Of a stretch of 64,000 nucleotides of DNA, positions 20,473 through 29,809 are shown one piece after another; positions within the stretch are counted from its first letter, which is position 1; every line of letters starts with the position of its first letter. Origin of the DNA: Halodesulfovibrio sp. MK-HDV. GTDB taxonomy: Bacteria; Desulfobacterota; Desulfovibrionia; Desulfovibrionales; Desulfovibrionaceae. Location of the stretch: positions 70,040 to 134,039 of the forward strand of contig NZ_WYDS01000002.1 in NCBI RefSeq assembly GCF_009914765.1, given 5' to 3'. The notes below the pieces were generated by a model. That model saw only the letters and a list, made by a program, of their open reading frames with translations, made no database searches and had not been told where the DNA came from. The position numbers and the translations under genes are program-made.

Positions 20473-21840
20473 ATGAAGATTGGACGCTATACAGTATGCG
20501 GCCTGCTTGGCAGGGGCGGTATGGGAGCTGTTTTTAAAGCTCGCCAGCCGGTAACTGGACGTATTGTTGCTCTCAAAGTTCTCAAGCCTTCCGAGATGAT
20601 GGAAATGTTTGTTGATCGGGATGAACTTATTGCGCGGTTTGAATCCGAAGCGCGCATTATGGGAAAACTTGATCATCCTAATATCGCTGCCATATGGGAT
20701 TATGATATTGCTGACGGCACGCCGTTTTTCATCATGGAGTATTTTTGCCGTAACCTTGGCATGGTAATCGGTGAAAGCTACCGTGTGGAAGCACCAACCC
20801 GAAAACTTCCGCTTACAACCGCAGTCTCATATGCGACGCAAACTCTTGATGCTCTGTATAGAATGCATCAGGCTGGCGTTGTGCATAGGGACGTGAAGCC
20901 GTTCAACCTTATGATTACAGGGTTGGATGAAATTAAGTTGATTGATTTCGGACTGTCGCGCCTTCGTGGAGAAATGAGGCCGACCACAGCCGCAAAGGGT
21001 GAACGTATAGGCTCCCCATACTACGCAGCACCGGAGCAGGAAGCAGCACCGGACAGTGCGGACGGCAGGTCGGATATTTTTTCTGTAGGTGTCATGTTAT
21101 ACCGAATGCTTACTGGGGTGTTGCCTACAGACGAAGCAGTGTATACAAACAATGTTGTTCCGCGTGCCAGCCAATATTCTCTTGATCTTGATGCTGAGTG
21201 GGATGCCTTTTTTGATACGGCAATGGCCTTTGACCCTGAAGACCGTTTTGCGACAGCGAAGGACATGCGCATTGCGCTTGAAACTTTGGTGGCAGCATGG
21301 CGTGATCGGGTCGACAATGAATGTCGTTTTATTGATGAATTTGCTGAAACCCCGCCGTGCCCGACGGATGCGCCTGTTCTGCGTACAGCGCCTGTAAAGG
21401 TGCGTCTTGCAGAGGCTCAGAAAACTTTTGGGTTGGATTCATTATGGCGTCCCGCTTGTGTTGGTATGGCAGACCTCACTGATAATGAGGACGGAACCGT
21501 GACGGATTCTGTTACAGGAAAAATGTGGCAGCAGTCCGGTAGCGAGTTTGCATGTACATGGGACGAAGCCCATGCGTATATTGCATCGTTGAATGAAAAA
21601 AAATTTGCAAGCTATCAGGATTGGCGGTTGCCGACAGTGGACGAACTATCGTCACTAGTGCAGGAACCACCGGAACTTGGAGCTTTTTGTGTGCCGCAAC
21701 TTATGGACAGTGCACAGGATACACTCTGGACGTGCGATTCAAAGTCATATATGGCGGCATGGTTTGTGAGTGCATCTTTGGGTTTTGTAGGCTGGCAGGA
21801 TATGACATGTCAGTTTGCTGTCAGAGCGGTGCGCGGATAG
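20473..21840 (+). CDS. Hanks-type Ser/Thr protein kinase with a C-terminal DUF1566 domain
   Basis: Residues 1-280 form a eukaryotic-like kinase: glycine loop GRGGMGAVFKA, catalytic lysine in VALKVLK, HRDVKPFNL loop, DFGLSR and an APEQE activation end. All key residues are present, so it should be active. No membrane segment follows. Residues 330-455 match the DUF1566/Lcl C-terminal type (VTDSVTGKMWQQ, YQDWRLPTVDEL), often attached to surface or sensor proteins. A GGGA site precedes the ATG. It sits between the phosphoesterase and the CxxC protein. Targets are unknown. Confidence 0.93.
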   Translation: MKIGRYTVCGLLGRGGMGAVFKARQPVTGRIVALKVLKPSEMMEMFVDRDELIARFESEARIMGKLDHPNIAAIWDYDIADGTPFFIMEYFCRNLGMVIGESYRVEAPTRKLPLTTAVSYATQTLDALYRMHQAGVVHRDVKPFNLMITGLDEIKLIDFGLSRLRGEMRPTTAAKGERIGSPYYAAPEQEAAPDSADGRSDIFSVGVMLYRMLTGVLPTDEAVYTNNVVPRASQYSLDLDAEWDAFFDTAMAFDPEDRFATAKDMRIALETLVAAWRDRVDNECRFIDEFAETPPCPTDAPVLRTAPVKVRLAEAQKTFGLDSLWRPACVGMADLTDNEDGTVTDSVTGKMWQQSGSEFACTWDEAHAYIASLNEKKFASYQDWRLPTVDELSSLVQEPPELGAFCVPQLMDSAQDTLWTCDSKSYMAAWFVSASLGFVGWQDMTCQFAVRAVRG

Positions 21841-26452: not shown

Positions 26453-26766
26453 ACAAATTCCATGCTACGGGGCGGTTACGTTTTAGAACTGACAGTTCTA
26501 TAATTCGTGTACTTAATTAGTTCTGCTTTGGCAATTTGCAACATCTAAATTGATTTTGGATGACAATATTTAGCTGATTCGGAGTGAAAATTGATATTCG
26601 TCGATTTGGTTTGAAGAAGTTATAACAAGAGTAAAGGTAAAAGCAGTTTACAAGACTCCGTAGGCTCTGTAACTATTTAAGGGTAGAAAGTGAAACTGTA
26701 CGGTATACACAGTTTTGCTGCATTTTGCTGTAAGACAGAGGCGTGGTTGCAGCAAAGTGCAAAAAT

Positions 26767-26792
26767 AAAGGGGCTCATTTATGAGTCCCTTT
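26767..26792 (-). terminator. Terminator-like hairpin
   Basis: AAAGGGGCTCAT pairs with ATGAGTCCCTTT with one mismatch. On the minus strand it is followed by TTATTTTTGC. Confidence 0.6.
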
Positions 26793-26893
26793 ATTATGCA
26801 GATTGATGTCAAACCCGCGCAGTGCAGCGCACCCCTAGGGCACTTGTTCCCGTATGGCTCGATGACTTGCCAACGGTTGACTGGCGTTACTTC

Positions 26894-26946
26894 AAAAAAA
26901 ACAAAATCTTACATACGTCTATGTATGCTTCGATTTTGTTTTTTTC
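26894..26946 (-). terminator. Long AT-rich hairpin downstream of the PFK-2-like gene
   Basis: AAAAAACAAAATC (left arm) and GATTTTGTTTTTT (right arm) enclose an inner CATAC/GTATG stem. It is followed by T-rich sequence on either strand and probably ends the malQ operon transcript. Confidence 0.6.
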
Positions 26947-27008
26947 TTGCGCCTTGCACTGAACATTTTTGTCTCAATCTGTAAGGAAAAGCGTAGCCAA
27001 TAATCACT

Positions 27009-28232
27009 TTAGTTACCAAGATCTGCATCCATAAACTTCACTAGTTCGAACAGTTTTTTCTGTTGTGTCGAGATGATATGGAACAGTGAGTTTTGTGGAA
27101 CTAAAATATACGGAACGTCATCTTGTCTTCTGAACAGAAAGTGGGAAAGGATCATGCGGTTAATTGCCTGATGCCCCACAATTAGGACGCGTTCTGCGTT
27201 ACCGGAAAGGAACAGTGCTTTTTTCAAGCCCCTGTCTACACGGTCTTTCAAGGTTCTGTATCCTTCTCCTTCCGGATAAACATAGCCGTATTTATCGTAG
27301 GAACGGTCACGGGCAATCTCAGGATATTGCTCTTTAATTTCAGAATACATTAAGTTTTCGCATACTCCGGCGTCGATTTCATCAAACTCGGGGAGTGGAA
27401 TAACTGTGCAGTTCGGCATGTGGTTTACAACATACTGTGCGGTTTGCTGCGAACGTCGCTTCATGCTGGTGAAGACGTAGTTGATTTCGTCTCCCTTAAA
27501 ATATTCACCAAGGCAACTTGCTTGCTTATGACCAAGCTCTGTTAACGAGGAGTTGCCCCCGATTCTGTCCATGACGTTGTATTCTGTCTGACCATGTCGC
27601 GCGAGATAGAGATTACGCACCCAGTCCGAAACAAGAATATCACGGATATTTGCATAGAACGGTATGCCGCTCGGCACATTTTCATTCAAAATAAGGTTAT
27701 GTAGAGAATCTACCATTACCCACATTTTTTCATCCAGCAGAGGTGAATAGATGTGCTCGTAATATTTGATGCGCTCTTTAAAGCTCATACAGGCTTGTTC
27801 TTCTGTCAGCTTGGAAAATTCAGAAAGTTTTGTTTTGCGCAGAATAGAAGCATCGACCAGCTCTTCATCGTTATTGATGCACTCGATCCAGAGAATCGGA
27901 TAGATTGCCATGCGTTCAATGGCAAGGCGACGATGACGGCTGACGTTGGTAGCATCGAGAATAGCGACGTTGCCGCCGCTCTGCAAAAACTCCGTGGCAC
28001 GGTTCATATTGGTAAAAGCAATTTCTTCACGTGCTGCTTTACCTGCCTGATTTGTAGGGCAGTAAAATTCTGGTTCAGAAGATTTGACACCAAGTCGTTC
28101 ACGGCGGATGTCGCCGTTATTAAAAATTTCCGTGCGAATACCTTCTTTTGAGAGACCATCAAGAATTTTTGCGGCAACAGTTGTTTTACCGCGAGCAGGT
28201 AGACCTACCATACCAATATAAAGCTTGTGCAT
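27009..28232 (-). CDS. 6-phosphofructo-2-kinase / fructose-2,6-bisphosphatase-like bifunctional protein
   Basis: The 407-residue protein has the two-domain layout of eukaryotic PFK-2/FBPase-2. The kinase half begins with the P-loop GMVGLPARGKTT (residues 7-18), then NNGDIRRERLG and ILDATNVSRHRR, all close to the animal and yeast motifs. The second half is a histidine phosphatase with LARHGQTEYN and RIGGNSSLTELG, the second histidine being in IVGHQAINRMIL. The family makes and removes fructose-2,6-bisphosphate, a signal rarely considered in bacteria. It lies 74 bases downstream of malQ with no terminator between, linking it to glycogen or maltodextrin use. A GGAGG site precedes the ATG. A different sugar-phosphate substrate is possible. 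Confidence 0.85.
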   Translation of the reverse strand: MHKLYIGMVGLPARGKTTVAAKILDGLSKEGIRTEIFNNGDIRRERLGVKSSEPEFYCPTNQAGKAAREEIAFTNMNRATEFLQSGGNVAILDATNVSRHRRLAIERMAIYPILWIECINNDEELVDASILRKTKLSEFSKLTEEQACMSFKERIKYYEHIYSPLLDEKMWVMVDSLHNLILNENVPSGIPFYANIRDILVSDWVRNLYLARHGQTEYNVMDRIGGNSSLTELGHKQASCLGEYFKGDEINYVFTSMKRRSQQTAQYVVNHMPNCTVIPLPEFDEIDAGVCENLMYSEIKEQYPEIARDRSYDKYGYVYPEGEGYRTLKDRVDRGLKKALFLSGNAERVLIVGHQAINRMILSHFLFRRQDDVPYILVPQNSLFHIISTQQKKLFELVKFMDADLGN

Positions 28233-28306: not shown

Positions 28307-29809
28307 TTATGTCCAGCGTCCAAACAGCCCCGTAAGTTGCGACAACTTATTGAACATTGGATGTTGCTGTTGTTCTTTGGTCATGCGCCATTCCCAGTTT
28401 CCATTCCCCGTTGATGGCGTATTCATCCTGCCCGCATTATCCAGTCCAAGGATATCCTGCACAGGGAATATGACCGTATTTGCGACGCTTTGCATGGCAA
28501 GACGCATAAAGGTGAGGTGCACATTATCGAGATCGGTACACTGCCCAACAAATTCATGCAGATTGTTCCGCCCTTGATCACCGGCTTCTGTCACGTACCA
28601 TCCCTTTACCGTGGAGTTGTCATGAGTACCTGTGTATAGAACACAATGCGGTTCATGATGAAACGGTGTGTCTGGATTTCGTGTAAGGTCGCCGCCGAAG
28701 CCGAATTGCAGAATCTTCATTCCCGGTAGATTAAACTGCTGTTTCAATTCTCGCACGTCCGCCGTGATAACGCCTAAATCTTCGGCAATAATGGGGAGCA
28801 TCCCGAGACGCAGGGTGAATGTTCTAAATAGCTCCATCCCCGGAGCATCTACCCATTTGCCATTTATTGCTGTGGGCTCATCCACAGGTATTTCCCAGTA
28901 ACCAGCAAAGCCTCTGAAATGGTCGAGCCGAATCTTATCCATAAGCTCAATATTATGACGCAGGCGTCGTACCCACCACTCAAAATTTTCATGGCGCATG
29001 GCGTCCCAGTTAAAAACAGGGTTGCCCCAACGCTGACCTGTTGCACTGAAATAGTCCGGCGGAACACCACCTACGTGGGTTGGAGTCCCGTTGTCATCCA
29101 GTTTGAACAGGTGTGGGTTTGTCCAGACGTCTGCGCTGTGATGCGTGACATAAATAGGAAGATCACCGATAAGGTTCAGCCCGTTTTTGTTGCAATACGC
29201 GCGTAATCTTCGCCATTGGGAAAAGAAAATATACTGCACATATTCTTCGTATGCGATGGCATCCTTATGTTCTGCATCCCACTGCAACAGGGCTCCCTGC
29301 TCTCTGTACTTCAACGGATCAGGCCATTCGGTCCATATTTTACCGGGATGTTCGTCCATGATGGTTACAAAACGTGCGTAATCACGCAGCCATTCTCTAT
29401 GGTTTTCTTTGAACACCGAAAAATGCGGACATGTACTGAGTGATTTTTTTTTGCGGGCGTAGGCAATGCGCAACAGGTGAGCCTTATAAATTCCGGCTGC
29501 TCCGTAATGTACAAAGGCATCGTGACCTTGCGGAGAATCACGAACTTCTTCCCATGTGATGATGCCGTCTTCGACCATCATCTCAGGACTGATGAGGAGT
29601 GGGTTGCCAGCAAAAGCAGACCAACTTGCATAGGGCGAGTTTCCCATAATTTCTGTAGTGGGAGTGGTTGGCAGGAATTGCCAATACAGTTGCCCGCGCG
29701 AGCGGAGAAAATCAGCAAAGTCATATGCTGCGGGGCCAAGATCGCCGATACCGAATCGCGATGGAAGAGAAGTAATATGTAAGAGTACTCCGCTGGAGCG
29801 AATATTCAT
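28307..29809 (-). CDS. malQ: 4-alpha-glucanotransferase (amylomaltase)
   Basis: It transfers glucan segments between alpha-1,4-glucans, processing maltodextrins or glycogen remnants. It has 500 residues from the ATG at 29809, which has a GGAGG site and begins at the conserved start (RSSGVLLHITSLPSRFGIGDLGP). GH77 catalytic features are present: RLDHFRGF with the nucleophilic Asp, IAEDLGVIT with the acid/base Glu, and GTHDNSTVKGW. It is cytoplasmic. It is the first gene of an apparent two-gene operon with the PFK-2/FBPase-2-like gene. Confidence 0.95.
   Translation of the reverse strand: MNIRSSGVLLHITSLPSRFGIGDLGPAAYDFADFLRSRGQLYWQFLPTTPTTEIMGNSPYASWSAFAGNPLLISPEMMVEDGIITWEEVRDSPQGHDAFVHYGAAGIYKAHLLRIAYARKKKSLSTCPHFSVFKENHREWLRDYARFVTIMDEHPGKIWTEWPDPLKYREQGALLQWDAEHKDAIAYEEYVQYIFFSQWRRLRAYCNKNGLNLIGDLPIYVTHHSADVWTNPHLFKLDDNGTPTHVGGVPPDYFSATGQRWGNPVFNWDAMRHENFEWWVRRLRHNIELMDKIRLDHFRGFAGYWEIPVDEPTAINGKWVDAPGMELFRTFTLRLGMLPIIAEDLGVITADVRELKQQFNLPGMKILQFGFGGDLTRNPDTPFHHEPHCVLYTGTHDNSTVKGWYVTEAGDQGRNNLHEFVGQCTDLDNVHLTFMRLAMQSVANTVIFPVQDILGLDNAGRMNTPSTGNGNWEWRMTKEQQQHPMFNKLSQLTGLFGRWT

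What the first reader, a model, noticed from the sequence alone, without database searches (positions are those of the whole stretch)
27009..28232. Bacterial PFK-2/FBPase-2-like protein next to malQ
Both domains carry the motifs of the eukaryotic bifunctional enzyme, including LPARGKT, DATN and RHG with RIGG. Fructose-2,6-bisphosphate is treated mainly as a eukaryotic signal, so a complete two-domain homologue in an operon with amylomaltase suggests that glycogen use in this sulfate reducer may be tuned by it.
Basis: partly seen in the sequence, partly recalled or inferred. Interest (0 to 1): 0.7.

Follow-up and report, generated by a model that had tools for sequence, protein, structure and literature searches.

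The report
Bacterial two-domain PFK-2/FBPase-2 homologue
A bacterium close to the sulfate reducer Halodesulfovibrio carries an intact relative of the eukaryotic enzyme that makes and destroys the sugar signal fructose-2,6-bisphosphate, and many relatives in its phylum carry it too; a Desulfovibrio exception was already in print, so this widens a known oddity rather than revealing a new system.

Summary
Confirmed. Window 27009-28232, minus strand, encodes 407 aa with an N-terminal 6PF2K and a C-terminal histidine-phosphatase domain, aligning nearly end to end with solved mammalian PFKFB (E 8e-54; 33-34% identity). Of 26 active-site positions checked, 22 are invariant in 62 bacterial rows (61 distinct, mostly best-scoring hits) and all 26 match in the query. 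Five FBPase-2 pocket positions are missing in two control phosphatases. PFK-2/FBPase-2 chemistry is the best reading; no activity was shown and the structure model failed.

It is not unique. 6PF2K passes its cut-off in 133 of 297 genomes of the order and 46 of 297 of a phylum sample, and the gene tree follows taxonomic families. A paper citing Rider 2004 already names Desulfovibrio desulfuricans as the bacterial exception.

The malQ link is mainly genus-level: adjacent in 9 of 9 located own-genus genomes, 12 of 66 located in the order; no order-wide association (69/133 against 88/164), though one appears when one large genus is left out. The glycogen interpretation is only partly supported.

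The parts
27009..28232 (-). pfkfb-like gene, 407 aa; N-terminal 6-phosphofructo-2-kinase domain and C-terminal fructose-2,6-bisphosphatase-type histidine phosphatase
27726..28226 (-). 6PF2K kinase domain, residues 3-169 (P-loop with K16 T17; F6P pocket R43 R44 R68 D93 T95 R101 K133 R154 Y158)
27054..27611 (-). His_Phos_1 domain, residues 208-393 (R212 H213 N219 R260 E285 H354; F2,6BP pocket Y296 R310 K314 Y325 Q355 R359)
28307..29809 (-). malQ, 4-alpha-glucanotransferase (GH77), directly upstream of pfkfb, 74 bp gap; ATG with a good Shine-Dalgarno taken as start (ORF listing gives a TTG further upstream)
26764..26795 (-). inverted repeat ending in a short T run: likely intrinsic terminator of the malQ-pfkfb unit, ahead of mutL; inferred, and not listed by the consensus scan (its loop is 2 nt, the scan asks 3-8)
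   Evidence: not listed

Best explanation
[quoted passage not shown] The N-terminal P-loop domain uses ATP to phosphorylate fructose-6-phosphate at C2; the C-terminal histidine-phosphatase domain removes that phosphate through a phospho-His213 intermediate. The resulting fructose-2,6-bisphosphate (F2,6BP) level sets the direction of carbon at the F6P/F1,6BP step. Shown: gene, domains, residues, purifying selection, retention in relatives. Inferred: both activities, and the effector role. My preferred target is the class I fructose-1,6-bisphosphatase of this genome (inhibition, hence less gluconeogenesis), then pyruvate kinase, then the trypanosome-type ATP-PFK. In this genus malQ is probably co-transcribed, so the enzyme may be produced when stored glucan is mobilised.
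For: Two-domain architecture; match to PFKFB structures over query residues 6-385, E 8.4e-54. F6P-pocket residues named for PFKFB3 in PMC3177832 passages: R74 R75 R98 D124 R132 R189 Y193 invariant in 62 of 62 rows; K47 and K168 (recalled as functional) also invariant. Phosphatase residues (roles recalled) R257 H258 N264 R268 G270 R307 E327 Y338 R352 K356 Y367 H392 R397 invariant in 62 of 62; E. coli CobC and YtjC lack Y338, R352, K356, Y367 and R397 while keeping R257, H258, N264, R307, E327 and H392. Own genome has one hit each to class I FBPase, PFK and PK. A PF00365 PFK is not an obligate partner: 11 of 133 pfkfb genomes have no hit, four of them at least 98% complete. The F2,6BP effector site of eukaryotic PFK arose in the duplicated C-terminal half (PMC12203962 passage), which this undoubled 446-aa PFK lacks.
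Against: No assay. The AlphaFold model was useless (mean pLDDT 34, 3-row alignment). Four of 26 positions vary in the 62 rows: T48-equivalent T 7, S 55; T126-equivalent T 58, S 3, A 1; I269 I 60, L 1, V 1; Q393 Q 35, R 27. No control was run on the kinase half. Targets are not identified; no linked neighbour was seen outside a few genera. E. [quoted passage not shown] PfkB-type kinases and other FBPase classes were not searched.
Confidence: 0.8

Rival explanations
1. Bifunctional fold but one domain dominates in the cell (mainly a kinase, or mainly a phosphatase), so it is a one-way F2,6BP producer or remover rather than a switch.
For: PFKFB3 has a kinase:phosphatase ratio of about 740:1 (abstract of PMC6937325 in the listing). 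PFKFB3 has S where PFKFB1 has R307; that this lowers its phosphatase is recalled.
Against: Both active sites are kept in the query, including R307 (R260), which PFKFB3 lacks.
Confidence: 0.3
2. The protein acts on a different phosphorylated sugar or metabolite (altered specificity in both pockets).
For: Identity to mammalian PFKFB is only 33-34%; NCBIfam's top hit is alpha-ribazole phosphatase (90.9 bits, below that family's 162.9 cut-off).
Against: F6P-pocket residues and the FBPase-2 pocket are kept; CobC and YtjC controls lack five of the latter. None of the 17 NCBIfam hits reaches its cut-off.
Confidence: 0.12
3. Recent acquisition from a eukaryote, a genomic curiosity without an established role.
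For: F2,6BP is otherwise described as eukaryotic (passages); only mammalian sequences stood for eukaryotes in the tree.
Against: In a tree of 61 bacterial and 3 mammalian rows, 13 labels (12 bacterial families and the mammals) need 12 changes, the minimum, against a shuffled mean of 39; dN/dS 0.026-0.041. An ancient transfer in either direction stays open.
Confidence: 0.05
4. Dedicated regulator of glycogen/maltodextrin use through its malQ operon.
For: malQ directly upstream, same strand, in 9 of 9 located own-genus genomes and in one genome each of three other genera (G083, G186, G233, counted by hand); association with malQ outside genus g3.
Against: No association over the whole order; g3 keeps pfkfb in 52 of 62 genomes without malQ or a strong GlgA hit. 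In the genus of G083 four other genomes have the two genes on one contig but about 9-21 kb apart. Elsewhere neighbours differ, e.g. 3-dehydroquinate synthase beside or near it in two genomes.
Confidence: 0.25

Closest known systems
Eukaryotic PFKFB / PFK-2/FBPase-2 (1k6m PFKFB1, 1bif PFKFB4, 6ibz PFKFB3)
   Same: Domain order, alignment over residues 6-385, F6P pocket, P-loop, phospho-His site and F2,6BP pocket
   Different: 33-34% identity; lacks the N- and C-terminal regulatory extensions of animal isoforms (M1 lies five residues before PFKFB1 residue 44, numbering from the recalled His258); bacterial gene
Desulfovibrio desulfuricans exception cited to Rider et al. 2004 (PMC9721465 passage)
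   Same: Related bacterium, presumably the same gene family
   Different: The original was not held, so the evidence behind it was not seen; here spread in the phylum, residue retention and a tree are added
Alpha-ribazole phosphatase CobC and YtjC (bacterial histidine phosphatases)
   Same: Catalytic core R257, H258, N264, R307, E327, H392 equivalents
   Different: Lack Y338, R352, K356, Y367, R397 equivalents; CobC's NCBIfam cut-off is not reached by the query
Trypanosome regulation by F2,6BP (recalled)
   Same: The genome's PFK is of the type whose best solved match is 2hig, a trypanosome ATP-PFK (organism recalled)
   Different: Whether pyruvate kinase is the target, as recalled for trypanosomatids, is untested here

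Membership tests
PFKFB (bifunctional PFK-2/FBPase-2) | 6PF2K domain followed by histidine-phosphatase domain in one chain | tested here: met
   both over Pfam cut-off
PFKFB (bifunctional PFK-2/FBPase-2) | Homology over nearly the whole length to solved PFKFB enzymes | tested here: met
   residues 6-385 of 407, E 8.4e-54
PFKFB (bifunctional PFK-2/FBPase-2) | P-loop and F6P-binding residues of the kinase | tested here: met
   11 of 11 positions match in the query (K16 T17 R43 R44 R68 D93 T95 R101 K133 R154 Y158)
PFKFB (bifunctional PFK-2/FBPase-2) | Phospho-His catalytic set and FBPase-2 substrate pocket | tested here: met
   15 of 15 positions match in the query, controls CobC and YtjC differ at Y338 R352 K356 Y367 R397
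PFKFB (bifunctional PFK-2/FBPase-2) | Predicted three-dimensional fold | tested here: inconclusive
   mean pLDDT 34 from a 3-row alignment
PFKFB (bifunctional PFK-2/FBPase-2) | Formation and hydrolysis of F2,6BP | not testable with these tools
   needs enzyme assay
Animal PFKFB1-4 isoforms | N- and C-terminal regulatory extensions | tested here: not met
   protein begins five residues before the aligned region and ends 22 residues after it
Alpha-ribazole phosphatase (CobC) | NCBIfam equivalog cut-off | tested here: not met
   90.9 bits against 162.9

The most novel reading that the evidence does not exclude
Desulfobacterota run an old, native F2,6BP signalling circuit, inherited within the phylum, that steers gluconeogenesis against glucan/sugar use by acting on class I FBPase or pyruvate kinase rather than on PFK; the signal is then not a eukaryotic invention, and the direction of transfer between the two domains of life is open.
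Probability: 0.35. Interest if true: 0.75.

Novelty: new member of a known kind. Interest (0 to 1): 0.4.

Why it matters
A January 2026 preprint still says that F2,6BP regulation of PFK appears to be eukaryote-specific (PMC12873801 passage). Here many genomes of a bacterial phylum carry the enzyme with its active-site residues kept, and in the one genus tested it is under purifying selection. The origin and ancestral target of this signal could therefore be tested directly in bacteria. It would also bear on how such cells switch between storing and burning glucan.

Tried and rejected
Structure: one AlphaFold job with the window protein and two Halodesulfovibrio copies gave mean pLDDT 34 and was discarded.

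Other phyla: could not be sampled. Plasmid and phage records gave 51 and 14 records, none covering 80% of the query; the rows shown (15 of 51, 14 of 14) match the phosphatase half. A viral-contig scan found no relative. Of the 14 control genomes of the genome search 3 ring, none over cut-off.

Counts: of 133 genomes over cut-off in the order, two score under 50 bits (G270, G047); of 46 in the phylum sample, three do (G496, G543, G582). Two order genomes carry a flag of a stop inside the match, G200 and own-genus G160; G160 was looked at and its 407-aa frame is open, 94% identical to the query; G200 was not.

Neighbours: my ORF picker recovered pfkfb in 16 of 22 stretches; in the other 6 a longer overlapping ORF probably masked it, so adjacency rests on HMM coordinates, read by hand: same contig and strand, matches at most 400 bp apart. 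Three of the 69 genomes with both genes (G187, G258, G285) had no listed malQ place and were left out. The sets were typed from the tables; pfkfb and malQ totals agree with the tool's tallies, while the strong-GlgA set (E at most 1e-50, 152 genomes) has no tally to check.

Recent eukaryotic transfer: not supported by the tree. The rows are mostly the best 30 hits per search, so weak copies are under-sampled; L016 and L030 are long branches that meet, and 8 forks are open.

Literature: Rider 2004 and Michels & Rigden 2006 (one search used a mistyped id) are not held; both seen only as citations. The listings (19 of 19; 20 of 39; 10 of 226; 2 of 2; 12 of 43; 10 of 1636; 6 of 6; 15 of 15) showed no other paper that I recognised as being about a bacterial PFKFB; one search found nothing. 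Passages of PMC2964296, PMC1079889 and PMC7894505 did not concern it; in the last, Pfk-2 is an ATP-dependent 6-phosphofructokinase.

Full report
The gene. The finding's coordinates hold one open reading frame on the minus strand, 407 codons, start ATG at 28232. It carries 6PF2K (residues 3-169) and His_Phos_1 (208-393), both far over Pfam's cut-off. phmmer against solved structures returns PFKFB1, 4, 3 and 2 over residues 6-385 or 388, E from 8e-54 to 1e-50, then the isolated FBPase-2 domain, then generic histidine phosphatases. The genome has a single match to this protein, and the closest named relatives are Halodesulfovibrio at 92-93% identity.

The active sites. I aligned the query with three mammalian chains and the proteins of 61 loci (62 bacterial rows; the window gene appears twice, so 61 distinct). 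The loci are the own copy, the two, and 58 best-scoring hits, so they are biased to good matches. All 61 span query residues 4 to 393 or more; identity is 46.5-93% apart from the own copy. The kinase positions that PMC3177832 passages describe in the F6P pocket of PFKFB3 (R74, R75, R98, D124, R132, R189, Y193) are invariant in 62 of 62; T48 is T in 7 and S in 55; T126 is T in 58, S in 3, A in 1. K47 and K168, recalled as functional, are invariant. In the phosphatase R257, H258, N264, R268, G270, R307, E327, Y338, R352, K356, Y367, H392 and R397 (roles recalled, PFKFB1 numbering) are invariant; I269 is I in 60; Q393 is Q in 35 and R in 27, Q in the query. As a control, E. coli CobC and YtjC share the catalytic core but not Y338, R352, K356, Y367 or R397. 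No such control was run on the kinase half.

Spread and descent. 6PF2K is over cut-off in 133 of 297 genomes drawn from the order (131 at over 100 bits), in 46 of 297 drawn from the phylum (43 at over 100 bits; nine of these from the own family), and in 31 of 144 from the class of G310, elsewhere in the phylum (30 at over 100 bits). The samples overlap. None of 14 control genomes is over cut-off. In a tree of 61 bacterial and 3 mammalian rows, 13 labels (12 families and the mammals) need 12 changes, the least possible, against a shuffled mean of 39, as low in 0 of 200. Taken alone, f1 and f54 need two changes each. This fits old residence with vertical descent and losses. Only mammals stand for eukaryotes, so the direction and age of any transfer are open. 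dN/dS among three close copies is 0.026-0.041, with dS near saturation.

Context. malQ lies 74 bp upstream on the same strand; a terminator-like inverted repeat with a short T run follows pfkfb at 26795-26764, ahead of mutL. The consensus scan did not list that repeat; it found no promoter-like site in the 74-bp gap, but none upstream of malQ either, and its two sites are fewer than the 5.4 expected. In the own genus the pair is adjacent in 9 of 9 genomes whose malQ place is listed (the tenth, G285, has both genes), plus G083, G186 and G233 in three other genera: 12 of 66 located genomes (by hand). In the genus of G083, four others have the genes on one contig about 9-21 kb apart. Over the order, malQ occurs in 69 of 133 genomes with pfkfb and 88 of 164 without (p 0.82); strong GlgA hits (E at most 1e-50, read by hand) in 65 of 133 and 87 of 164 (p 0.49). 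Genus g3 drives this: pfkfb in 52 of 62, malQ and strong GlgA in none. Without g3 the association with malQ is positive (69 of 81 against 88 of 154, p 1e-5) and with GlgA too (65 of 81 against 87 of 154, p 3e-4), uncorrected for relatedness. So the glycogen idea is plausible in this genus and not the general function.

Likely targets. The genome has one PF00365 PFK, 42% identical over 406 columns to 2hig (E 2e-97), which I recall as a trypanosome ATP-PFK, with the same G and K at the two positions recalled as telling ATP from PPi enzymes. It has one class I FBPase whose best solved match is 2gq1 (recalled as the E. coli enzyme) and one pyruvate kinase. PfkB kinases and other FBPase classes were not searched. 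Eukaryotic PFK gained its F2,6BP site in the duplicated C-terminal half (PMC12203962 passage), which is absent here. Recalled: in trypanosomatids F2,6BP activates pyruvate kinase, and it binds the active site of mammalian FBPase. And 11 of 133 pfkfb genomes have no PF00365 hit, four of them (G022, G124, G215, G261) at least 98% complete. I therefore rank FBPase first, PK second, PFK third; this is inference.

Novelty. [quoted passage not shown] PMC12873801 (passage), a 2026 preprint, says PFK regulation by F2,6BP appears to be eukaryote-specific. I recognised no paper stating them in the listings, several of which were cut to the best rows.

Noticed in passing
window 26850-26965 (minus strand): Intergenic repeat with an inverted repeat, downstream of pfkfb; the own genome has 21 listed matches including itself and its own reverse complement, many of them partial, the others at 69-86% identity; four lie about 355 bp apart at G000:C6:135492-136666.
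   Followed up: partly
L078:466-1806 (-), own genome contig C26: The genome's only PF00365 PFK is closest among solved structures to 2hig (trypanosome ATP-PFK, organism recalled), 42% identity.
   Followed up: partly
window 20473-21840 (+): Ser/Thr protein kinase domain followed by an Lcl_C domain.
   Followed up: no
genus g3 genomes of the order: 62 genomes of one large genus have no malQ hit and only weak or no glycogen-synthase (PF08323) hits, yet 52 keep pfkfb.
   Followed up: partly
G022, G124, G215, G261: Genomes at least 98% complete with pfkfb but no PF00365 phosphofructokinase hit.
   Followed up: no
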